NCBI RefSeq assembly: GCF_003605635.1
Contig: NZ_QMDW01000017.1
Span: 1 to 47,850 of the forward strand
Direction: 5' to 3'
Source: Halonotius pteroides
Lineage (GTDB): Archaea > Halobacteriota > Halobacteria > Halobacteriales > Haloferacaceae
DNA length: 47,850 nucleotides
The notes below the pieces were generated by a model. That model searched no databases. It was not told where the DNA came from and was given only the letters and a program-made list of their open reading frames with translations. Positions 18,397 to 29,731 of this stretch are shown here, one piece after another. Both the position numbers and the translations under genes were made by a program. Each line of letters starts with the position of its first letter. Within the stretch, counting starts at the first letter, position 1.

Positions 18397-18768
18397 TATT
18401 CTGTCATGGTGAGGTTGTCGCCTCGGGTACGTTTGGTTGCTCTTGGAAAGCAGATTGTATCAGTCGTTTGCCTGCGAGATATGCGCTTTCCATCTTGCAT
18501 CTCAGAGCAAATACCATTCTTATCTGGTAGTATCTCGATCAGTCAGTCCAAAACCCTACAAAACAGCTGGGTTGACCCAATTACTGAGCTATCGGCACGT
18601 CGTGAATGATTCGATGACAGGCTACGGGTGGGGAACATTTCTTTCGCCGTGTCGGTGTTACTGTGATAATTCGCCGAAGTCAATAGTCAGGAGGTTTGTC
18701 ACTGAGCCGACGCGTTGATCAGCGGTCACTGCTCGCTGTCGACGATAGAATAGAACTGCGGAATGCCA
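18397..18768. other. Gene-free boundary region
   Basis: No supported gene. Composition shifts here from the GC-rich core block to the AT-richer accessory segment. Short open frames show no domain or promoter signature. Confidence 0.4.
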
Positions 18769-19422: not shown

Positions 19423-19667
19423 CTACTTAGATTCTCCTTGTCCGTCGCCGTGGTCGTCGGGTAGTATCGCTACGTCCATATCAATAAGCTCGCTTACTCG
19501 CAGTCCAGCGTCGGCCAACAACGCGATGTGCCTTCGTTGCGCTGTTGGAGGTAGTCAGCTCCAACCGAGTAACACGCTGCCGGGCGTGATTCGATCTGTT
19601 CTGGTTTCAACCACCCTTTCGCATGAACTTTGGAATCTAGATTTTTCGGCCTTGTTGGATCGTTTGT
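19423..19667 (-). pseudogene. Tyrosine recombinase (phage-integrase family) fragment
   Basis: From 19667 leftwards the frame reads NLDSKVHAKGWLKPEQ then VGADYLQQRNE, after which a one-base shift near 19525 brings in ALLADAGLRVSELIDMDV, ending at TAG 19423-19425. LLADAGLRVSEL is box I of tyrosine recombinases with its catalytic Arg. Box II and the Tyr are missing, so this is a dead relic. No start codon is visible: an in-frame TAA lies at 19668-19670. It shows that an integrating element once occupied this place. Confidence 0.72.
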
Positions 19668-20061
19668 TTATAAATACTCGATAGGTTGTGGCCACTCAAC
19701 TTTGGAGAGTACACAGAGAATCCAAAGTTCACGAGAAGAGAAGCTTCCCGAGTACCGGTGCGTGTTTCAAGACGAGAAACTCGCACCCCCCTATTATACC
19801 CTCTCCGAATCGTTCAACTGGTAGAGTCGGCGGGTGTGCTCTGACACAGCCATTCCCCGCTTCCGGATTCCATAATCCACGCCCTCCATTGAACATCCCA
19901 TCCTCGCCGACTCAGTGTGTTACGCTAGGGGCTTTCCCTCTCCACTTTCCAGCACAATCCCTCAAGGAGACACTTACAATATCTACGCCCTGGAACAGAT
20001 GTGGCCCAGTTGCTGGTTGAATCGAACCCTGATCGGGTAGTATGACTCTTGAGTTGTTGAG
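19668..20061. other. Gene-free stretch beside the integrase relic
   Basis: No gene with recognisable motifs. A T-arm-like string near 20015-20035 does not fold into a tRNA. Likely remnants of a former integrated element. Confidence 0.35.
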
Positions 20062-20652
20062 CTACTCAGCGGACTGACCGTTGACTGCAACAGCACTTTC
20101 TGAATAGCTCATGCTGGCTGTCTGATACCAATACTGTATCAACACAGCACCACTGCAGGCCATCAAGAGATCTTCTGCTGTATCTCGGGCGTAATAGGCA
20201 GGTGTCCAGGAGTGCCAGAAAGCTCGAAAGAAATACTCATAGATCTCAAACCCAGCTCCAATACTCAATAACGCAACAAACATCCATGAGAGAGACACTT
20301 GTGCTGAAACAACGTCTCTGAGTCCGACGAGAAGAATCCCTGCAATACCGATTCCACTGACGAAGTGAGTCATCAGATCCCACCAGCCAAATTGAGCGTA
20401 CCACTGGAATTCATACCCACCGAAATGGAGGAAAGTCACGAAGCTCCCCCATAAGAACAACATGACCCAATAGATCGACCACGAGTTACGTGTTTTGAGA
20501 TCACTGATGAGCTGGCTGCTCAACCTCACTGGCAATCGGAACACAGAGATATTGAGGTACCGTCGGTCAGCAAAGAGGGCTGTTAGAAGAGCCAATGCTA
20601 AACAGGACACCGGTATGAGTTCGTGTGAAAGGGCAAGCGACGTTGTGGACAC
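20062..20652 (-). CDS. DUF2238/YjdF-like integral membrane protein
   Basis: 196 aa with about five transmembrane helices. The pattern WWDLMTHFVSGIGIAG, then FEIYEYFF, then DTAEDLLMACSGAVL matches the DUF2238 (YjdF) layout, in which His, Glu and Asp in membrane helices are conserved. No biochemical role is established for this family. Start ATG 20652. It is monocistronic, about 190 bp below repeat copy A, which may overlap its promoter area. Confidence 0.6.
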   Translation of the reverse strand: MSTTSLALSHELIPVSCLALALLTALFADRRYLNISVFRLPVRLSSQLISDLKTRNSWSIYWVMLFLWGSFVTFLHFGGYEFQWYAQFGWWDLMTHFVSGIGIAGILLVGLRDVVSAQVSLSWMFVALLSIGAGFEIYEYFFRAFWHSWTPAYYARDTAEDLLMACSGAVLIQYWYQTASMSYSESAVAVNGQSAE

Positions 20653-21034
20653 ATCAATACCGTATGGCCAGCGGCATATAATTCTTGTAAAGACTTAAAC
20701 AAATAATTTAGTTATTAAGCTATATGTCTGTTTTGGAAGATATAATTTAGTGTTTATTATGATTAGGATGTCTAAAATCACTCGATACACAGTTAGTGTT
20801 CGTTACCAAGTAGAGCCGAATAGTGAACGTACCACACTTGTGGTCACAATGTGACCGAAGCGTGTGACACCCTAACGAGCCAGCGTGAGGGATGGTACGT
20901 GATGGATGGAGTGTGGGGCTGATACTGGCTCTATTTCTTCTAGGAGTTGCTCCGTCTAATAACCACAACCCGTGTTTCGGAGACTGAGACTCCTGGTTCC
21001 GTATTATCAGATAGAGAGAGGAGTTCGCCCTTGT
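20653..21034. other. AT-rich intergenic region containing repeat copy A
   Basis: No gene seen. The first 100 bp are AT-rich and could hold the promoter of the membrane-protein gene at 20652. A 61-bp repeat (20842-20902), shared with 27127-27187, is inside. Confidence 0.45.
20842..20902 (+). repeat. 61-bp dispersed direct repeat, copy A
   Basis: Matches 27127-27187 in the same orientation at 53 of 61 positions without gaps. The longest exact run is 22 nt at 20862-20883. Weaker similarity extends about 20 bp further left. It begins with a perfect 7-bp palindrome GGTCACA-a-TGTGACC. Function unknown. Confidence 0.75.
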
Positions 21035-21472
21035 TTAGCCACTTGCACTCCCTTTCTCAACGGATCCATTTGCGACGGGGGCAAAGACAAGATTCGTTCT
21101 TGGTGGAGAGATACCCGTATATTGGTATGAACTTCCTGCACCACGGGGATAGACCGTGTAATTTCCAGTTGCTATCTGTGGAGTGGTAAACTCGCCGTCA
21201 TTATTTGTGGTCGTCGTCAGCGTAGACGTTGAAACAGCATTTTTTAGATTGACTTCGCCTGATTGATTCTCTACGACAATTACTGCATTAGCGATTGGCT
21301 CCCCATTCTTGTCGAGTGCCTGTCCACTGATGACTTGATCTGTAGCCAACGGGCCAATCCCGACAAACGCCCCAAGGGCCCAGATTACCCCTGCTAAGAC
21401 CACAATCGCTGTGACGACAATCAGAAAGTAGCGCTTATAATCTGGGGACTGTGATGTTCTGTCTATCGCCAT
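21035..21472 (-). CDS. Membrane-anchored protein with carboxypeptidase-regulatory-like domain
   Basis: About 145 aa from ATG 21472 (MAIDRTSQSPDYK). One N-terminal membrane helix (YFLIVVTAIVVLAGVIWALG) is followed by an extracellular beta-sandwich with the CarboxypepD_reg pattern: VISGQALDKNGEPIANAVIVV, then NDGEFTTPQIATGNYTVYP. Such domains fold as seven-strand sandwiches and often serve as adhesive or spacer modules. The open frame extends further upstream without homology, so the shorter start is preferred. Monocistronic. Confidence 0.65.
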   Translation of the reverse strand: MAIDRTSQSPDYKRYFLIVVTAIVVLAGVIWALGAFVGIGPLATDQVISGQALDKNGEPIANAVIVVENQSGEVNLKNAVSTSTLTTTTNNDGEFTTPQIATGNYTVYPRGAGSSYQYTGISPPRTNLVFAPVANGSVEKGSASG

Positions 21473-21696
21473 GTGTTGGAATATCTGAACGTGAATAAAA
21501 ATCATTTGCCACACAAATTTATAATTTGTATGTTCATTTAGGTTTGAGACGTTAGGTTCATAACGACTTTTCATAACAAACCAGTAATTAAGATCAAAGG
21601 AGTCCCGTTTAACTGCTGTGGAACGCCCAAATTTGACGGTTTCAGCGGTTTGGGTTTGTTTGCGTTAGCGATTTGACGCACAAGCCGGCTGTATTC

Positions 21697-23922
21697 TTAG
21701 CTTGGAAGCAACTCTGGATCAACATTGTTCATCAGCCCACGTGCTTCGAACTGCTGCCGAAGTTCTTGATAGATTTCGGTCTGAGTGCTCTCATGATCGT
21801 AGGCAAGTGTATGGAAGTCGCCAACAACAGCTGTGTACCGCTGTCCACGGGTCAGCGCGACATTCAATCGACGGGGGCCATCAGGTGTTCGACCAAGGAA
21901 TCCGATCTCACCGCTGGCGTTACTCCTGACCAGTGAGAGGATGATGATTGGTTTCTCACTGCCCTGATAGGCATCAATCGTATCGACGGAGATTGCTGTG
22001 GCATCAGAAACCGCATTCGCTAAAGACTGTCTGATCGTCCGAACCTGTGCCACATATGGTGTTATCACCCCGATATCGGCTGGTTTGATAGTTGTCTCAG
22101 CCAGCAGTTGTGTGACGAGATGAACGACCACCTTCGCCTCAGTTGGATTCGCCCGGGAATGATCAACGACATCGACTGAGCCGCCGACATTATACGCCTC
22201 AATTGGTGTGCGATCGGCAAGCGGTTCAACCCGACGGCCATTCCGAAGGCTCCGGTCGTAGAACTCTCGGTTGGGGAAATAGGCGATATCCCGATGCATG
22301 CGGTACTGGGTTTTGAGTTGGACACCGACGCCTTCGTAGACGCCACCGCTGGCGTACAGATGTTCGAACAACGAGAGGCCGTAACTGGAGTCAGGCGGCT
22401 CCTCAGTCGAACTGAATGGTGGCAACTGCTTGTGGTCACCTGCCAATACGACTCGGTCAGCCTTTGAGAGGGGAATACACGAGGCCGTACAGGTGGCCTG
22501 GGTCGCCTCATCAATCACCACGAGGTCAAATGATCGGTGTAGGCGTGCGGCACTGCTGTTTGTCGCTGCGACGATCTGCGGAGTGGCCTCGACATCGGTG
22601 TAGTTCTCTCTAATGAGCGGTCGTGCTGACCGATCAGCGTTGATACGATCCAGCATGAACTCTGCTTCACCATGCTGACCGTGGGCGTGCAGGGATGTCT
22701 GGTCAACATCGTCGTCTGTTGAGCCGCCCGCAACGAGGTTATCGACGGCCTGATTCGAGTCTGCACAAACCAACACGTCATCGCCGGCCTTGACTGCACG
22801 GCGGATGATCTCGATGAGCGTGCGTGTCTTTCCTGTCCCAGGTGGGCCATGAATGCAAAACAGATTATCGGCCAACAGCGCGTATTTGACGGCTGCCTGT
22901 TGTTCCTGATTCAACTCGGTATCGAATGGCGTACTCTGGGCAGCTGCGCTATTTGCGAACGTGAGTTCTGTGTTGCCAGTGAGAATCGCTTCGGTCGGTG
23001 TGTCTCCGAGCTCTTCGACAGCCTCCTGTTCTCGGTCGAAGGGGACAGGGTTGAGTAGTCCCGATAATCCACACTCTCGACCTTGCGTGAGAGCCGATCG
23101 AATTGAGGCCGGTCGATCGATATCGGCCCAATCAAAGGATAGCCAAAGTGATCGACCACGGATTCGCTGGACTGTCCCGATGATCGGAAAGCTGTCTGGT
23201 GGGTCTGTCCAGTTGGCGTGGAGCAACACATCATTGTCTTCGTGGATATCAAATTCGTTTTCGACGATGTAGGCCCAATCATGGTCTCGTCGATCTTCGA
23301 GTTCATCAGGTAGATCGACGCGAAACTCGTATTCACCATTCGTTTCCCCGACGCAATGGAGTGCCGGGATGGCAGCTTCATTTTGAGCCCACTGTGACCG
23401 TGGTGACACTGCTTCAGCGTGTTCACGGTTGCTTTGCTGGGTCGCCGTACGTTCGGCTTCGATATAGGCCTCAAAGCCATCGAGCAGCGTCGTCGACTCA
23501 ACGGGGTTGCGCGGCGGCTCTGTGTCGTTAATCGGGCTGTCGTATCCCGGGGGGAAGGTCTCAGGAAGGTAATCAGAATGCCAGAATCGAATTCGCTTTG
23601 CTAACTTGGTCTGTGCAAATTCGTCAGCAGCGATTGTCTCTTCGCTTCCGTTCTGATTGATATAGAACAGTTCACCACGGAGGTCGTGGTCGAGATAGCC
23701 GATGTATTCGTTGGTTGGGTCTGCGCTATCAGTGCCATGCAGTGGGATGCAGATCCACTCGTTTGTTGGGTGGCTGAGTGAGTCGTGGTGCCCTGCAAAT
23801 TCCGCAACCGGTCGAACTGGAACTGATTGGTCGGTTGGTTCTAGATGTTCCGGCCGGGGGTCAACGAGTGTCGCCGATGACAGTGAGAACTCCTCAATTG
23901 CGTGCTCGAATAGCAGGGACAT
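21697..23922 (-). CDS. Superfamily 1 DNA/RNA helicase of the DNA2/NAM7 (UPF1-like) type
   Basis: 741 aa from ATG 23922; a TTG seven codons upstream is also open, but a TATA-like box sits 26 nt before the ATG, which fits a leaderless start there. The C-terminal half carries all SF1 motifs: Walker A GPPGTGKT (about 359), DEA (about 471), GDHKQLPP (about 495), TQYRMH, VDTIDAYQGSE and NVALTRGQ. The first about 330 residues are unlike known nuclease domains and are probably beta-rich substrate binding. Related helicases act in nucleic-acid repair or anti-phage systems. It lies inside the repeat-bounded block. Confidence 0.87.
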   Translation of the reverse strand: MSLLFEHAIEEFSLSSATLVDPRPEHLEPTDQSVPVRPVAEFAGHHDSLSHPTNEWICIPLHGTDSADPTNEYIGYLDHDLRGELFYINQNGSEETIAADEFAQTKLAKRIRFWHSDYLPETFPPGYDSPINDTEPPRNPVESTTLLDGFEAYIEAERTATQQSNREHAEAVSPRSQWAQNEAAIPALHCVGETNGEYEFRVDLPDELEDRRDHDWAYIVENEFDIHEDNDVLLHANWTDPPDSFPIIGTVQRIRGRSLWLSFDWADIDRPASIRSALTQGRECGLSGLLNPVPFDREQEAVEELGDTPTEAILTGNTELTFANSAAAQSTPFDTELNQEQQAAVKYALLADNLFCIHGPPGTGKTRTLIEIIRRAVKAGDDVLVCADSNQAVDNLVAGGSTDDDVDQTSLHAHGQHGEAEFMLDRINADRSARPLIRENYTDVEATPQIVAATNSSAARLHRSFDLVVIDEATQATCTASCIPLSKADRVVLAGDHKQLPPFSSTEEPPDSSYGLSLFEHLYASGGVYEGVGVQLKTQYRMHRDIAYFPNREFYDRSLRNGRRVEPLADRTPIEAYNVGGSVDVVDHSRANPTEAKVVVHLVTQLLAETTIKPADIGVITPYVAQVRTIRQSLANAVSDATAISVDTIDAYQGSEKPIIILSLVRSNASGEIGFLGRTPDGPRRLNVALTRGQRYTAVVGDFHTLAYDHESTQTEIYQELRQQFEARGLMNNVDPELLPS

Positions 23923-23948
23923 TCCGGTTGTTGTGATATCCAACTACG

Positions 23949-23956
23949 AATATAAA
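23949..23956 (-). promoter_or_regulatory. TATA-like box of the helicase gene
   Basis: TTTATATT on the minus strand, 26 nt before ATG 23922. This decides the start choice for the helicase. Confidence 0.5.
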
Positions 23957-24198
23957 AGTCTGAACTAGAGAATCCTCGGGTATCATACCAGTTCGATGGG
24001 CACTGCACTCGAAGCCAAATTAAGGAGATCCACCCCAGTTATGATTCGCTTTCGAGGGATATGTTTCACGAGAGGCAACAAAACCGCTTGCCATCATCAT
24101 CGTTCTCGGAGCCAAGCCCAACGAACTCTCAAAATTTGAGCTACGCCGTTCACGGCGCGGAGGATGTCATTCGATGGTATGCCCACTTTGATGAGCAA

Positions 24199-24912
24199 TT
24201 ACTGGGAGTTGGCACCACCTTTCAGCAGCACTGCAATCGAGAGTGCCTGTAGTCGGGCCAGAGCGTTCAGCAGGTTGATTGCGACGATGACAAAGATCAC
24301 GCCACCACCGGCGACGGCGAGTGCCTCCGGCAGTGTCTCGACGACCCACTGGTCGACACTGTACGCACCGACCGTGACTGCCGAATCGAAGCCGACGAAC
24401 TGGCTCTCGTAGACGAACGGTGTCGCCAGCAACGCGGCACTGATCGCCAGTAGTGTTGGCAACACGACGAGCGAAATAATACTAAACACGAATTTTACCG
24501 CAATGAGGCCGACACTTAGCCACGTCGAGCGAGCCGTGACGAGCGACACGACTGCATCGAGAAACTCGCCGCCCGGCAAAACAAGCCCATCTCGCACTGA
24601 GGTCTTCGAGAGGAACTCCGGCTCTGAGATATCGATACAGACCAGACAGCTGGCAAGTCTGGCTTCAAGACTAGCGACTCCTGTCGTCGCGGCGAGCGTC
24701 CCGACAAGGATTGGCAGGCCGAGGAGGGTAATCAGCAGCCCGATCCCGAGCGATGCCCCGATAACGAAGCCGATGAAATACAGCTGGCCGAGGATGGCCG
24801 CGAGAGCGAGATAGGCGATGTTTCCGTACGTCTGCCGTCGGAGTGGGGCCCCAAGCACCGTTCGTAGCGATTCCAGCACTGACGAGCGATCCGTGGCCAT
24901 GGTGGCTTGCAT
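24199..24912 (-). CDS. Sensor-domain (PF13796-like) membrane protein
   Basis: 237 aa with about five or six hydrophobic helices. The N-terminal pattern YGNIAYLALAAILGQLYF, a Gly/Leu-rich helix pair and LEARLASCLVCIDI matches the Sensor domain family, which in other organisms is fused to histidine kinases. No kinase is fused or adjacent here. Start ATG 24912; ATG 24900 is equally possible. It lies in the repeat-bounded block but is separated from its neighbours by 138-276 bp, so probably a single transcript. Confidence 0.65.
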   Translation of the reverse strand: MQATMATDRSSVLESLRTVLGAPLRRQTYGNIAYLALAAILGQLYFIGFVIGASLGIGLLITLLGLPILVGTLAATTGVASLEARLASCLVCIDISEPEFLSKTSVRDGLVLPGGEFLDAVVSLVTARSTWLSVGLIAVKFVFSIISLVVLPTLLAISAALLATPFVYESQFVGFDSAVTVGAYSVDQWVVETLPEALAVAGGGVIFVIVAINLLNALARLQALSIAVLLKGGANSQ

Positions 24913-25050
24913 CGTACCTGACGGTTCACCACACTCCGTTATATTCCAAGGTGCTGTGTTTCAGTCGCTGCAACAGTTGTCTGTCGATATTTCTTCAGAG
25001 CATCCCATCAAGTGGGCCATAACCATAGCACGATGGCTTAATCTTCTCAA

Positions 25051-25944
25051 TCACGGGGAAATCTCCCTGAAATCCATATCTCGACCCACAAACACACGAA
25101 CATCTGTTTCCTCTGCTATCGCGGTCAACTGATCTACTGTTGCCGGGACAGCGTCGATATCTAACTCCCAGGGCACCGTATTGAACACAATTGCGGGTGT
25201 CGTGGCTGTATTCTCGTCTGTATCAAGACGGTAGAGCCGATCGCGGACAAGAACCTGACCGAGAGCGGTATCGAACGTTGCTGCCTCGAATGTCTTCGCC
25301 GTTTGAATGATCCAGTCACTCTCGTCAGTCTCGATGATGGCATCAGCTGTCCGGGTGATCATCCCGCCGACCGAACTGTCCTGACCGTGCGCAGGCGAGT
25401 CGGGTAGTTGTGAGGTTCCGACGGCGACATCTCGATGAACAGTGCCGTCAACTACATCTGCTGCAAGGAACTGCTTGAGTACGGTTCGCTCCCGTTCGTC
25501 TTCGTCCATGTACTTCCTCTCGATCGCTTCCAGCCCATGATTGGAGACCTGATTGAGAAATCCGAGTGTGGTATCCGTCGCATCAACATCCGGCCCGTAG
25601 CCGATCGAATCACTACGATTGGTTGTCGCCCAGACGAGCCCGTCGTCGATAATGCCGACGTACCCATCGATGTCGACGTGTCGGCCACCGGATTTGAACG
25701 CCTCTGACGGCGAGTCATCGATATTCGAGCCGAGCGTCCGGTTGTAGTGAAAATCTCGATCATACACGTCTTCCGGTGAGTTCTCACGTATATCGCCCGG
25801 GAAGACTTGGATCGAACCATACCGATTGTTCACTCGCTCGATCTCGACTGCGATCCCGTATTTGCCGGAAATCGTGTATAGGAGGTCGATGATTTGCTCG
25901 TGATCGTCATAATTTGACGCGTCAGCGTAGTATCGAAGTTTCAT
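25051..25944 (-). CDS. Uncharacterised 297-aa protein, possibly PD-(D/E)xK-like at its C terminus
   Basis: No family is recognised with certainty. The N-terminal about 60 residues (MKLRYYADASNYDDHEQI) could be a small alpha/beta domain. Residues about 210-290 read DWIIQTAKTFEAATFDTALGQ, then VLVRDRLYR, then TPAIVF and VRVFVG. This order (strand with acidic/Lys site, helix with GQ, Tyr-rich helix, strand) resembles archaeal PD-(D/E)xK nucleases, but the ExK motif would have to be QTAK, so it may be inactive or a chance match. Its ATG overlaps the stop of the zinc-finger gene (ATGA), so the two are translated together. Confidence 0.5.
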   Translation of the reverse strand: MKLRYYADASNYDDHEQIIDLLYTISGKYGIAVEIERVNNRYGSIQVFPGDIRENSPEDVYDRDFHYNRTLGSNIDDSPSEAFKSGGRHVDIDGYVGIIDDGLVWATTNRSDSIGYGPDVDATDTTLGFLNQVSNHGLEAIERKYMDEDERERTVLKQFLAADVVDGTVHRDVAVGTSQLPDSPAHGQDSSVGGMITRTADAIIETDESDWIIQTAKTFEAATFDTALGQVLVRDRLYRLDTDENTATTPAIVFNTVPWELDIDAVPATVDQLTAIAEETDVRVFVGRDMDFREISP

Positions 25945-27047
25945 GACTTTTCAGCTCCGTGGTGGTCGGCTCCCTTTGCGTCGGTTAGTCTCCGTTCTAC
26001 TTCTTCGAGACGATCGGCTACAATTGAGGCTTCTTCGAGGGGTTTGTCGATGCCCAATGCCGTTCGGTAGAGGTCTGCAGTTCGCTCTACTGTTTCGACC
26101 GATAGCTCGTCGGACTCTTCAAGCCAGTAGCTGTCTGCGAGTTTCTTGTATGCCCATGGATCCTCTGGGTACTCCTCGATGAGTAGCTCAAACTCGGTTC
26201 TGCTGTCAGCGGTTCTGTTTAATTCGTTGAGCGAATCGGCGATGAAGTGGCGAAAATCAAGCAGCAACTCGTCGTTTGCATCCGGAAACGTCTCACAGAC
26301 TTCTCGACAAAAGTTGAGTCGGTGCTCGTGATAGGTGGGATCGTCCTCAGCGACGGTTGCAAGATCACTGTCAAGCGATCGAATAAACGCCTCAAGTGAG
26401 AGAAATGTCGGTGTTGTTTGGTCTGCTTCTTCGATAGTTGTACTGTCATCGGGTATGACAGCAAGAATGTATTCCCAGGCAGTTAGCCACCGGTCGCAGG
26501 CCGTGGCACGGTCTCCGTTCTCTCGGAGATCGCGTCCCTCCTGGACGAGGTCATAGATCCGTTCTTTATTCGGCACCTCGGGAGCCCATCGCTCCCAGAG
26601 TTCCTGTGCTGCCATCCAAATGAAATCCTGATCGAACCCCGTGGCCGCAACTTCATAGTCGGCTTCCCACTGCTCAGAGAGTGTCGTCGCCGAATTGAGA
26701 TTCTTTGCTCGGTTCCGAAACGCCGTCTCATTTGTTTCGATGCCGTGGTTTGTGAGCTTGTCCACGATGTCGTCCGCCGAGAGTGCTTCAATATCGCTGC
26801 GTTCCCAGCGATCAGCTTGATCCCCACCGTTTGATGTATCGACTGTTTGGTGCTCACGCTGGCTGGACTGGTTGTCGTCCGTGTTTGCGTCCGTATCGCT
26901 CTCATCCAACCCGTGTTCCTCGACGTATTTCTCAACACGCTTCCGGTCAATTCGACTCAGCTCATCCATATCGTGAGCCTCATAGAGATGTTCGCGGAGT
27001 GTACCCTCTTCTGGGAAAGTTTGCCCGCAGTAGCGACAATCGCCCAT
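25941..27047 (-). CDS. C2H2 zinc-finger protein with TPR-like C terminus
   Basis: 368 aa. Residues 4-25 form a classical finger CRYCGQTF then REHLYEAH with spacing C-x2-C-x12-H-x4-H. A charged linker rich in Asp, Asn and Gln follows (about 45-85). Then comes an alpha-helical part with TPR-like pairs (VQEGRDLRENGDRATACDRW, YKKLADSYWLEE). Zinc finger plus scaffold suggests nucleic-acid or protein targeting for its coupled partner at 25944. The function is unknown. Start ATG 27047; repeat copy B lies about 80 bp upstream. Confidence 0.62.
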   Translation of the reverse strand: MGDCRYCGQTFPEEGTLREHLYEAHDMDELSRIDRKRVEKYVEEHGLDESDTDANTDDNQSSQREHQTVDTSNGGDQADRWERSDIEALSADDIVDKLTNHGIETNETAFRNRAKNLNSATTLSEQWEADYEVAATGFDQDFIWMAAQELWERWAPEVPNKERIYDLVQEGRDLRENGDRATACDRWLTAWEYILAVIPDDSTTIEEADQTTPTFLSLEAFIRSLDSDLATVAEDDPTYHEHRLNFCREVCETFPDANDELLLDFRHFIADSLNELNRTADSRTEFELLIEEYPEDPWAYKKLADSYWLEESDELSVETVERTADLYRTALGIDKPLEEASIVADRLEEVERRLTDAKGADHHGAEKS

Positions 27048-27126
27048 TACTGAACAGCCATGTAGGCCAGTGAGAAAGCAGTAAGGATTTCACCGCATAC
27101 AAAATGAGTGACTGTGCCACGGTCGC

Positions 27127-27187
27127 GGTCACAATGCGACCGCAGTGTGTGACACCCTAACGAGCCAGTTGAAGAGATGGTACGTGA
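27127..27187 (+). repeat. 61-bp dispersed direct repeat, copy B
   Basis: Same orientation as 20842-20902, 53 of 61 identical, ending 5 bp before the left inverted repeat of the IS1634 element. The 22-nt exact core is at 27147-27168. The palindrome at its left end is less perfect here, though a different inverted repeat GGTCGC/GCGACC surrounds it. Confidence 0.75.
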
Positions 27188-27192
27188 AGTAT

Positions 27193-27208
27193 CCCATATT
27201 CCGCACCC
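27193..27208 (+). repeat. Left terminal inverted repeat of the IS1634 element
   Basis: CCCATATTCCGCACCC, exact complement of 29134-29149. Confidence 0.85.
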
Positions 27209-27260
27209 CTCTGCAAGAGAGTATCAATTTCCCTCTGGCGATTAGCCAGAGATTCAGTCA

Positions 27261-28961
27261 GTGGAATTTGGATTCCGATCATTTCTTCACAGTATACTTG
27301 TAGAGCAGCAGGTAGTGACTGAAGCATTCACTCCGGGACCTCTGCCAATTATCGCAGCAGTCTGCCGTGAATCGGGTCTTGTTGAGACAATCGATGATTT
27401 GGTTGACTGGGACGAACAGCAGTGTACTCTCTCACCTGGTGAGAGAGTCATGGCACTGGTCATGAACGTCTTGACTGAAGGGAGGCCGTTGTATCAGCTC
27501 CCCGGATTCTTCGAAGGTACAGACACTGAGAACCTCTTTCACGATGGGATCGAACCAGACAATCTCAACGATGATGCACTTGGCCGTGGCCTGGATCAAC
27601 TTGCTGAGACAGGACTCCGCACGGTCCTCGGGATCGTGCTGTGGGAAGCTGCCAACCGCGAAACACAGTCTCCCACCGTCGTCCATTCCGATACGACGAC
27701 TGTCTCCGTTCAGGGAGCCTACGAAAATGACTCTGATGAGTCTGATCAGGAAGTAAACATTACCTATGGACACAGCAAAGACAATCGTCCCGATCTCAAG
27801 CAGTACACCGTTGGACTCGGTGTCGACCAACACGGCGTTCCCGTCGTCGGTGACATCCTCGACGGGAACGCCTCTGACAAAACCTGGAACGTCGATGTAA
27901 TCGAAGATCTCTCCCGCTGGGTTGATACCGACGAACTTGCTGCCTATGTCGCCGACTGCAAAGTGGTCTCAAAGGAAACCTTCGATGCGGCTGATGAGTT
28001 CGATATCGAACTCATCAGCCGACTCGCGCGCACTTACAATCTCACTGATGAAATGATCGACACAGCTCTCGACGAAAACAACTGGATAGATCTGGGCGCG
28101 TTCTCTGAGGACGATGACGCTGCAGTCTACCAACTTCAGAGCTTCCCGGGTACACTCTACGAGCAAGATGTCCAGTGCATTGTTGTGCGGTCATCGTCGC
28201 TAAAAGAGCAAGCAGAAAAGCGGATCGCACGGGATCTCGATACCACCGAGGAAGGCCTCATGGACGCGGTCGACCAACTGGGCGACCGCTCGTTTGCATG
28301 TGAAGAAGACGCAACAGAAGCCGCCGCAGAGTGGCTCGCTGATCATGACGAACGCTGTTTTGAGATTGACACAGACGTTGTCGAAACCGAGGAAAAGAAA
28401 TCACGTGACAGCCCTGGCCGCCCACCGAAGGACTGGGAGCCATACAAAACAGTGTATAAAATCACTGTCACAGTACAGCGAGATGAAGAAGCAATCGAGA
28501 CACGGAAGCAGCGTAAAAGCTGCTTTGTGCTAATCACAACACTGACAGACACCGACGAGTGGAGTGGTGAAGACATTCTGGAGCTGTATAAAGATCAACA
28601 GACGGTTGAACGGCGGTTTCCGGTTCTGAAAGATCCCAAGCGGGTCGGGCCGGTGTTTCTGAACCGGCCCGACCGCGTGGAAGCGTTCGGGTACGTGCTG
28701 ATTCTGGCATTATTGGTGTACTCGCTCATCGAACAGCGAGCACGGCAAGCGTTAGCCACGGCTGAGAAGCCGATGGAGTTGGCCGGTGGGCCGACAAGCT
28801 TTCGGCCCACCGGCAGGCGTGTCCTCGAACGATTTGAGAATATGCTGATTCTCGTTGACGAGGATGGGAATAGAGAAATCCCGGCTAATGTTGATGTCCC
28901 TGAACGGGTGCTTGAACTGCTTGACCTGAGTGTGGAAGTGTACGGTGTTGAAGATGTGTAA
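27261..28961 (+). CDS. IS1634-family transposase (DUF4277 type)
   Basis: 566 aa. The N-terminal domain is of the DUF4277 type (PLPIIAAVCRESGLVETID, then SPGERVMALVMNVL). DDE residues: Asp144 in VVHSDTTT, Asp232 in YVADCK and Glu450 in TVERRFPVLKD. The reading frame is full length and undamaged, so the element may be active. The coding sequence holds unusually long perfect inverted repeats (separate entries). Start ATG 27261, 68 bp inside the element. Confidence 0.88.
   Translation: MEFGFRSFLHSILVEQQVVTEAFTPGPLPIIAAVCRESGLVETIDDLVDWDEQQCTLSPGERVMALVMNVLTEGRPLYQLPGFFEGTDTENLFHDGIEPDNLNDDALGRGLDQLAETGLRTVLGIVLWEAANRETQSPTVVHSDTTTVSVQGAYENDSDESDQEVNITYGHSKDNRPDLKQYTVGLGVDQHGVPVVGDILDGNASDKTWNVDVIEDLSRWVDTDELAAYVADCKVVSKETFDAADEFDIELISRLARTYNLTDEMIDTALDENNWIDLGAFSEDDDAAVYQLQSFPGTLYEQDVQCIVVRSSSLKEQAEKRIARDLDTTEEGLMDAVDQLGDRSFACEEDATEAAAEWLADHDERCFEIDTDVVETEEKKSRDSPGRPPKDWEPYKTVYKITVTVQRDEEAIETRKQRKSCFVLITTLTDTDEWSGEDILELYKDQQTVERRFPVLKDPKRVGPVFLNRPDRVEAFGYVLILALLVYSLIEQRARQALATAEKPMELAGGPTSFRPTGRRVLERFENMLILVDEDGNREIPANVDVPERVLELLDLSVEVYGVEDV
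27426..27448. repeat. Inverted repeat inside the IS1634 transposase gene
   Basis: ACTCTCTCACC-t-GGTGAGAGAGT: 11-bp perfect arms with a 1-nt loop within the coding sequence. Confidence 0.8.
27989..28022. repeat. 34-bp perfect palindrome inside the IS1634 transposase gene
   Basis: Arms of 17 bp without spacer: CGGCTGATGAGTTCGAT and its exact complement. It encodes an ADEFDIELISR stretch, so both arms are coding. It could extrude as a cruciform or fold as a strong mRNA hairpin. Confidence 0.9.
28643..28674. repeat. 12-bp inverted repeat near the transposase 3' end
   Basis: GGTCGGGCCGGT with its complement after an 8-nt loop; perfect arms, GC-rich, within the coding sequence just after Glu450. 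Confidence 0.85.
28782..28814. repeat. 13-bp inverted repeat near the transposase 3' end
   Basis: GCCGGTGGGCCGA and its exact complement around a 7-nt loop (caagctt), within the coding sequence. Confidence 0.85.
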
Positions 28962-29133
28962 GATTGACACAGAGGAGAGACTCTGTCATTTGCCCCGAGA
29001 AGCACGTTTTTTATCACTCAAATTTGACACAATCGGTGATGCGGTAGGTGAATCCAGCCGTTTTATTCAGATCAACCGACAAGAGAGTGTAAAATCTGGT
29101 GTGATTTTCTAAAATTCCTCACCAGCTCGTTTA

Positions 29134-29149
29134 GGGTGCGGAATATGGG
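29134..29149 (-). repeat. Right terminal inverted repeat of the IS1634 element
   Basis: GGGTGCGGAATATGGG on the plus strand, exact complement of 27193-27208. Confidence 0.85.
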
Positions 29150-29157
29150 TTACGTAT

Positions 29158-29731
29158 CTATGTCCGTAAGTATGAGGAAGATTCAAACAGAGTGTCTGAA
29201 ACCTCTGCAAGCGTGTCAGTGACAGATCGTATGTCCGTAGCCGCCGATCGAAGCGACTGCAGCTCACGATCAACGACTCTCTGTAATGCTTCCCGCTGCT
29301 GGATTGCGGTATCAATCTTGGCGATAAGAGTAGCTTTCGTAGCAGGTAACAAGTGATCAGATTTGATGAGCAACACCGCTAGCTCAGGGCCAAATTCTTC
29401 GGTAATACTTTCTTCATAGGTATCATCATAGTCGTCCTCATAATGGGATAGATCCATTACCGTCTCACTGTAGGCCTCACGAACCACCAACAGTGTCTGT
29501 GGCACAACCTGTTGTTCGTATCCAACCCTCTGATCCTGAGACGGCCTTTTATTGGGGGGACGGACGTTCGATCCGAGTGCCAAACCGATCGAACGCTGTT
29601 TGTTCAGCAGCCAGTCGGGAGTGCTCAGTTTCCATGTGGTCGATAGCAGCAGAAATTAAATCATTGGTTTCAGACTGGATAATAGCACACATAAACTTGG
29701 TAACAGTGGTTATTTTTTCATTTGATAGCAC
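29158..29731 (-). pseudogene. DUF7260-like haloarchaeal protein, frameshifted at a C6 tract
   Basis: Read from 29731: MLSNEKITTVTKFMC, then HMETEHSRLAAEQTAFDRFG, ending at a TAA just after a run of six C (29554-29559 on the plus strand as G). The other frame continues with RVGYEQQVVPQTLLVVREAY, then ETVMDLSHYEDDY and GPELAVLLIKSDHLL, to TAG at 29158. Together they form the usual order of a DUF7260-type protein: N-terminal coiled helix, central YxETVM/HY motif, C-terminal coiled coil. The IS1634 right end lies 8 bp after the stop codon. The frameshift may be a lesion or a reversible slippage. Function unknown. Confidence 0.6.

What the first reader, a model, noticed from the sequence alone, without database searches (positions are those of the whole stretch)
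20842..27187. Direct 61-bp repeats bound a 6.2-kb gene block
Two same-orientation copies (53/61 identical, 22-nt exact core, with weak similarity extending left) flank five genes, next to an integrase relic. This is the layout of an integrated island or a recombination-excisable cassette. One copy ends 5 bp from an IS. The repeats also have an inverted-repeat start, so they may be protein-binding sites or ends of a small non-autonomous element.
Basis: partly seen in the sequence, partly recalled or inferred. Interest (0 to 1): 0.65.

Follow-up and report, generated by a model that had tools for sequence, protein, structure and literature searches.

The report
Two-copy short repeat in archaeal island
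Two real but diverged copies of an 86-base non-coding repeat sit on either side of five genes in a patchwork genomic island of a salt-loving archaeon; they look like an old short mobile repeat rather than the edges of a gene cassette that moves as one piece.

Summary
Five leftward genes lie between them, and one copy ends 5 bp from an IS1634 end. The repeat is private: two copies in its own genome, none found in some 467 other haloarchaeal genomes, the plasmid, phage and viral collections, or beside relatives of flanked gene gF. The "excisable island" reading is not supported. The detectable island edge lies 2.3 kb further left (synteny with congeners stops at 18.4-18.5 kb), the block holds no recombinase, and its genes have separate histories: gF-gE-gC recur elsewhere without repeats, gD stands alone in a congener, and another short repeat family lies inside the block. 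The IS beside copy 2 lacks a target duplication, so that side looks rearranged. Differences between the copies show no sign of RNA or coding constraint. Copy 1 has 8-bp terminal inverted repeats and an inner palindrome; copy 2 is decayed. Best reading: an old, two-copy, transposase-free short repeat resembling those of Haloquadratum (SMR/PATE), now drifting. A shared regulatory site remains possible.

The parts
20822..20907 (+). Repeat copy 1, 86 bp; terminal inverted repeats ACGTACCA (20827-20834) / TGGTACGT (20894-20901); palindrome GGTCACAATGTGACC (20842-20856)
27107..27192 (+). Repeat copy 2, 86 bp, left terminal repeat and palindrome decayed; ends where the IS begins
20062..20652 (-). gA, membrane-protein-like gene of a family common in related genomes; left of copy 1
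21035..21574 (-). gB, protein with a carboxypeptidase-regulatory-like domain
21624..21687 (+). Another short intergenic repeat, inside the block, also on contigs C33 and C36
21697..23943 (-). gC, SF1 helicase, IGHMBP2-like
24199..24912 (-). gD, Sensor-domain (PF13796) membrane protein; 86% identical DNA in congener G416
25051..25944 (-). gE, unknown; partner of gF in relatives
25941..27047 (-). gF, C2H2 finger plus TPR-like protein; starts 60 nt from copy 2
27193..29149 (+). IS1634-family insertion sequence (transposase 27261-28961), no target duplication
19423..19554 (-). Possible tyrosine-integrase fragment, outside the repeats
   Evidence: E = 0.9 only
18473..18494 (+). Left island junction: end of congener synteny and start of similarity to other islands of the same genome

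Best explanation
The two copies are members of a very low-copy, transposase-free short repeat of about 75-86 bp. Copy 1 keeps terminal inverted repeats ACGTACCA/TGGTACGT and an inner palindrome. Such a repeat would have been moved by a transposase acting in trans, or copied with neighbouring DNA, within a patchwork of mobile DNA, and the copies have since diverged without detectable constraint. They happen to lie either side of five genes that came together separately; IS1634-linked rearrangement later reshaped the right side. Shown: two copies only, terminal inverted repeats in copy 1, no constraint signal in the divergence, mosaic neighbours, an IS without target duplication. Inferred: that the unit once moved by itself, and how.
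For: Copy 1 has 8-bp perfect terminal inverted repeats (dinucleotide-shuffle P 0.006) and a 7-bp-arm palindrome (P 0.035). Similarity stops sharply at both ends. Divergence looks unconstrained: base pairs are not retained beyond simulation, no coding bias, longest identical run P 0.06. The surroundings are mobile DNA: island junction, IS1634 without target duplication, truncated DUF7260 gene, other short repeats shared between islands of the same genome. Haloarchaeal genomes are documented to carry short (80-110 bp) transposase-free mobile repeats that give no target duplication and insert into other mobile DNA (PMC3119063).
Against: Only two copies, both at this locus, whereas the known repeats of this kind are usually numerous. 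Copy 2 lacks good terminal repeats. No empty site without the 86-bp unit could be found, so mobility is not shown. Both copies lie upstream of leftward genes, as a regulatory site might.
Confidence: 0.42

Rival explanations
1. Shared cis-regulatory site: each copy lies upstream of a leftward gene (copy 2 is 60 nt before gF, copy 1 is about 170 nt before gA) and binds the same DNA-binding protein, co-regulating the two units.
For: Position of both copies. Repeated TGTGAC/GTCACA half-sites in both copies (sequence). In six relatives an unrelated palindrome, CTTACCAA...TTGGTAAG, lies 100-150 nt upstream of gF.
Against: None of the gF relatives examined carries this repeat. Copy 1 lies far upstream of the TATA-like TTATAT found 29 nt before gA's start codon (sequence). 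86 bp is long for an archaeal operator (general knowledge).
Confidence: 0.22
2. Scar of a segmental duplication or of homologous exchange: both copies descend from one stretch of ordinary DNA (for example a gene end) copied during island rearrangements, never mobile by itself.
For: A parallel exists: in Natrinema hispanicum (L171) the 3' end of an HTH gene is repeated, in the same orientation, either side of gF, a second gene and an IS. No constraint signal in the divergence. The right flank looks rearranged through the IS.
Against: Sharp ends without any gene similarity, and terminal inverted repeats in copy 1. Frames ending inside the repeat show no significant coding bias.
Confidence: 0.2
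3. attL/attR of an integrated, excisable element carrying gB-gF.
For: Direct orientation, a 22-nt identical core, foreign surroundings, a possible integrase fragment nearby. Archaeal att sites can be intergenic (PMC8371274).
Against: No recombinase between the repeats and no tRNA. Differences lie on both sides of the core; the run of 22 identities is only borderline (P 0.06). The enclosed genes have separate histories and another repeat family lies inside.
Confidence: 0.08
4. Near-terminal palindromes of an IS605-type or PATE-like element that picked up gB-gF as cargo.
For: IS605-type elements and PATEs in haloarchaea have similar near-terminal palindromes at both ends, in one case an exact 22-bp duplication (PMC3119063).
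Against: No tnpA or tnpB in the block. Mosaic history of the block. Poor palindrome in copy 2. No related ends among plasmid records.
Confidence: 0.05

Closest known systems
Short mobile repeats (SMRs) of Haloquadratum walsbyi (PMC3119063)
   Same: Length (80-110 bp there, 75-86 bp here), inverted ends (copy 1), no transposase, lying among other mobile DNA
   Different: Two copies only; inverted ends decayed in copy 2; mobility not shown; their sequences were not compared because the supplementary tables were not available
PATEs and IS605-type transposon ends (PMC3119063)
   Same: Palindrome inside the repeat; similar palindromes at two places in the same orientation
   Different: Copy 1 has terminal inverted repeats, which PATEs lack; no tnpA or tnpB nearby
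attL/attR of archaeal integrated elements (PMC8371274)
   Same: Direct repeats either side of genes in a foreign region
   Different: No recombinase inside, no tRNA, mosaic contents, divergence on both sides of the core
IS1634-family insertion sequences
   Same: One abuts copy 2; the inner side of its right end, CACCCTAAACGAGC, resembles the repeat core CACCCTAACGAGC
   Different: The match is at about the 1% level in shuffles; the IS terminal sequence CCCATATTCCG is absent from the repeats

Membership tests
Short mobile repeat (SMR) | about 80-110 bp, no transposase gene | tested here: met
   86 bp of similarity, non-coding
Short mobile repeat (SMR) | inverted terminal repeats | tested here: inconclusive
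   8 bp perfect in copy 1 (P 0.006), lost in copy 2
Short mobile repeat (SMR) | several dispersed copies | tested here: not met
   two copies 6.3 kb apart, none elsewhere in the draft genome
Short mobile repeat (SMR) | insertion seen against an empty site, without target duplication | tested here: inconclusive
   no relative with the flanking stretches was found
PATE / IS605-type end | no terminal inverted repeats, near-terminal palindrome | tested here: not met
   copy 1 has terminal inverted repeats; palindrome in copy 1 only
attL/attR of an integrated element | recombinase gene in the element or its remains inside | tested here: not met
   no recombinase among the five genes; the weak relic is outside
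attL/attR of an integrated element | identical core at both ends | tested here: met
   22 nt identical, but the run is only borderline unusual (P 0.06)
attL/attR of an integrated element | contents move as one unit; empty site in relatives | tested here: inconclusive
   contents are mosaic, which speaks against it; no comparable empty site was available
MITE of IS1634 | terminal sequence shared with the IS, 6-bp target duplication | tested here: not met
   CCCATATTCCG absent from the repeats; no duplication
Structured RNA | compensatory changes or an Rfam match | tested here: not met
   no Rfam match in the repeats and no retention of pairs beyond simulation
Conserved operator of gF | present upstream of related gF genes | tested here: not met
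   20 gF loci read directly and 26 scanned with the model, none carries it
Operator (any) | bound by a regulator | not testable with these tools
   needs a binding or reporter assay

The most novel reading that the evidence does not exclude
Haloarchaeal gF-type gene modules are exchanged between genomes at palindromic boundary sites: the 86-bp repeats in the window and the unrelated CTTACCAA...TTGGTAAG palindromes upstream of gF in relatives (two copies 8.9 kb apart around such a module in G148) would be different versions of one kind of recombination site.
Probability: 0.06. Interest if true: 0.65.

Novelty: new member of a known kind. Interest (0 to 1): 0.22.

Why it matters
It removes a tempting claim (an excisable five-gene cassette) and replaces it with a modest one: a private short repeat in a mosaic island. 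It shows that flanking direct repeats alone are poor evidence for mobility when the genes between them have separate histories. The gF family (C2H2 plus TPR-like, with partners such as gE, an SF1 helicase, a SWIM-domain protein or XPB-Bax1) and the CTTACCAA palindromes met on the way may deserve more attention than the repeats.

Tried and rejected
(1) Homologues of the repeat: own genome, 392 order genomes and 170 family genomes by blastn, a covariance model over 392 genomes, exact 17- to 20-mers in the viral and genome collections, blastn in plasmids and phages. All negative; the hits L029 (Pseudomonas-type phage tail gene), L134 (inside a coding gene) and L165 (a bare hairpin) were read and dismissed. 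(2) Structured RNA: fairly stable hairpins (z -1.1 to -2.9), but no Rfam match and no retention of pairs. (3) Coding remnant: short frames with synonymous-looking changes; not significant. (4) C-terminus of the truncated DUF7260 gene beyond the IS: relatives of that protein end differently. (5) Derivation from the IS1634 end: about 1% by shuffle, and the terminal sequence is missing. (6) Integron attC-like site: no inverse partner of CCCTAAC within the repeat (read directly). (7) An empty site via gA: homologues are at most 48% identical and none of their loci holds another gene of this stretch.

Full report
Check of the observation. The second-best direct match in the window scores 17 against 37 for this pair, so the pair is not chance. 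Similarity does not continue significantly to the left or right. The copies are intergenic and enclose five minus-strand genes: gB (carboxypeptidase-regulatory-like domain), gC (SF1 helicase, IGHMBP2-like), gD (Sensor domain), gE (unknown) and gF (C2H2 finger plus TPR-like). The neighbouring IS is an IS1634 member running from about 27193 to 29149.

How widespread it is. The genome (3.0 Mb in 115 contigs) holds exactly two copies. None were found in 392 genomes of the order or 170 of the family by blastn (about 467 other genomes in all, since the two sets overlap), none by a covariance model over 392 genomes, none by exact 17- to 20-mers in the genome and viral collections apart from one chance match, none in plasmids or phages, and none in the loci of 26 gF relatives. 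The genome is a draft, so collapsed copies cannot be excluded, and not every haloarchaeal genome was searched.

What lies around it. Congeners G367 and G417 are syntenic with the window up to 18493 and 18391, then similarity stops. At 18473 the window starts to resemble stretches on contigs C33 and C43 of the same genome, so an island edge lies there, 2.3 kb left of copy 1. Whether congener synteny resumes beyond 33.4 kb was not searched. The presumed integrase relic (19423-19554) lies between that edge and copy 1 and is only faintly recognisable. Within the five-gene block, 21624-21687 is another short repeat, also present on C33 and C36. On the right the IS has no target duplication, although members of the same family show 6 bp (TTGGAG in Halococcus dombrowskii, TGCTAC on contig C36), and beyond it a DUF7260 gene is truncated at both ends (positions 49-168 of 242). 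The right side has therefore probably been rearranged through the IS.

Is the block a unit? gF, or at least part of it, is matched in 38 of 392 order genomes. Of 20 gF loci read at length, four carry gE directly behind it and one a gE fragment; others have varied partners (SWIM-domain protein, XPB helicase, Bax1-like nuclease). In Natronomonas aquatica the order is gF, gE, SWIM gene, gC, without any direct repeat. gD has an 86%-identical counterpart standing without the other block genes in congener G416. The five genes therefore look assembled in steps, and the repeats do not mark the ends of one transferred segment.

What the repeat may be. Copy 1 has terminal inverted repeats ACGTACCA/TGGTACGT (shuffle P 0.006) and a palindrome GGTCACAATGTGACC (P 0.035); copy 2 has lost the left arm and the perfect palindrome. 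Simulated substitution shows no extra retention of base pairs, no coding bias, and only a borderline long identical run (P 0.06). The simplest account is an old two-copy short repeat drifting without detectable constraint. In Haloquadratum walsbyi, transposase-free short mobile repeats (SMRs, 80-110 bp, inverted ends, no target duplication) and PATEs (near-terminal palindromes related to IS605-type elements) are frequent and often lie in other mobile DNA (PMC3119063). The window repeat resembles an SMR in size and ends but fails the copy-number test and lacks an empty site, so it is likened to SMRs, not filed as one.

Rivals. A shared regulatory site cannot be excluded: each copy precedes a leftward gene, and in relatives a different palindrome precedes gF. 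But no gF relative examined carries this repeat, and copy 1 is far upstream of gA's TATA-like box. Attachment sites are unlikely: no recombinase inside, no tRNA, differences on both sides of the core, mosaic contents. Archaeal att sites can be intergenic (PMC8371274), so location alone does not decide. A duplication scar is plausible; a parallel, a 66-bp gene-end remnant flanking gF in Natrinema hispanicum, was found.

Verdict. The more curious by-products are the gF-centred modules and the CTTACCAA palindromes, listed under things noticed in passing.

Noticed in passing
L063, L064, L066, L073, L074, L077, L083-L103 (not in the window; own genome C36:20516-20559): Palindrome CTTACCAA(AC)...(GT)TTGGTAAG, nearly always 42-45 bp in all, in 21 of 170 family genomes against one control match, often in pairs or triples (for example 1864 bp apart in three genomes). 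It lies upstream of gF in six relatives and directly before start codons elsewhere, sometimes with a TATA-like spacer; perhaps an operator family on mobile DNA.
   Followed up: partly
window 21624-21687; L154 5146-5209; L155 15027-15077: Short intergenic repeat (CGGTTTCAGCGGTTTGGGTTTGTTTGCGTTAGCGATTTGA...) in three islands of the same genome, next to unrelated genes each time, on C36 near a likely CRISPR-cas cluster. No match in plasmids.
   Followed up: partly
window 18473-18622; L157 9153-9302; L154 11994-12528; L155 17316-17353: Island-edge element beginning GATAYGCGCTNTNCATCTTGCAT, in at least four places of the genome and, more distantly, on a Halovenus salina plasmid. It could be an attachment site or a transposon end.
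   Followed up: partly
window 19617-19951; L154 10415-10737; L155 15856-15897: Non-coding stretch with inverted repeats AACTTTGGAATCT / AGAATCCAAAGTT either side of a TATA-like box, shared by islands of the same genome.
   Followed up: no
window 25051-27047; L063-L066; L182-L185: gF (C2H2 plus TPR-like) with gE and changing partners (SF1 helicase, SWIM-domain protein, XPB-Bax1) looks like an undescribed modular, perhaps defensive, system; distant gF relatives occur in Ignavibacteriae, Methanophagales and Syntrophobacteraceae.
   Followed up: partly
window 29158-29583: DUF7260 gene truncated at both ends, stopping 8 bp from the IS end.
   Followed up: yes
window 27988-28026: Near-perfect palindrome inside the IS1634 transposase gene, also present in the Halovenus salina relative.
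   Followed up: no
L171 9841-9906 and 14174-14239: In Natrinema hispanicum the 3' end of an HTH regulator gene is repeated either side of gF, another gene and an IS.
   Followed up: yes
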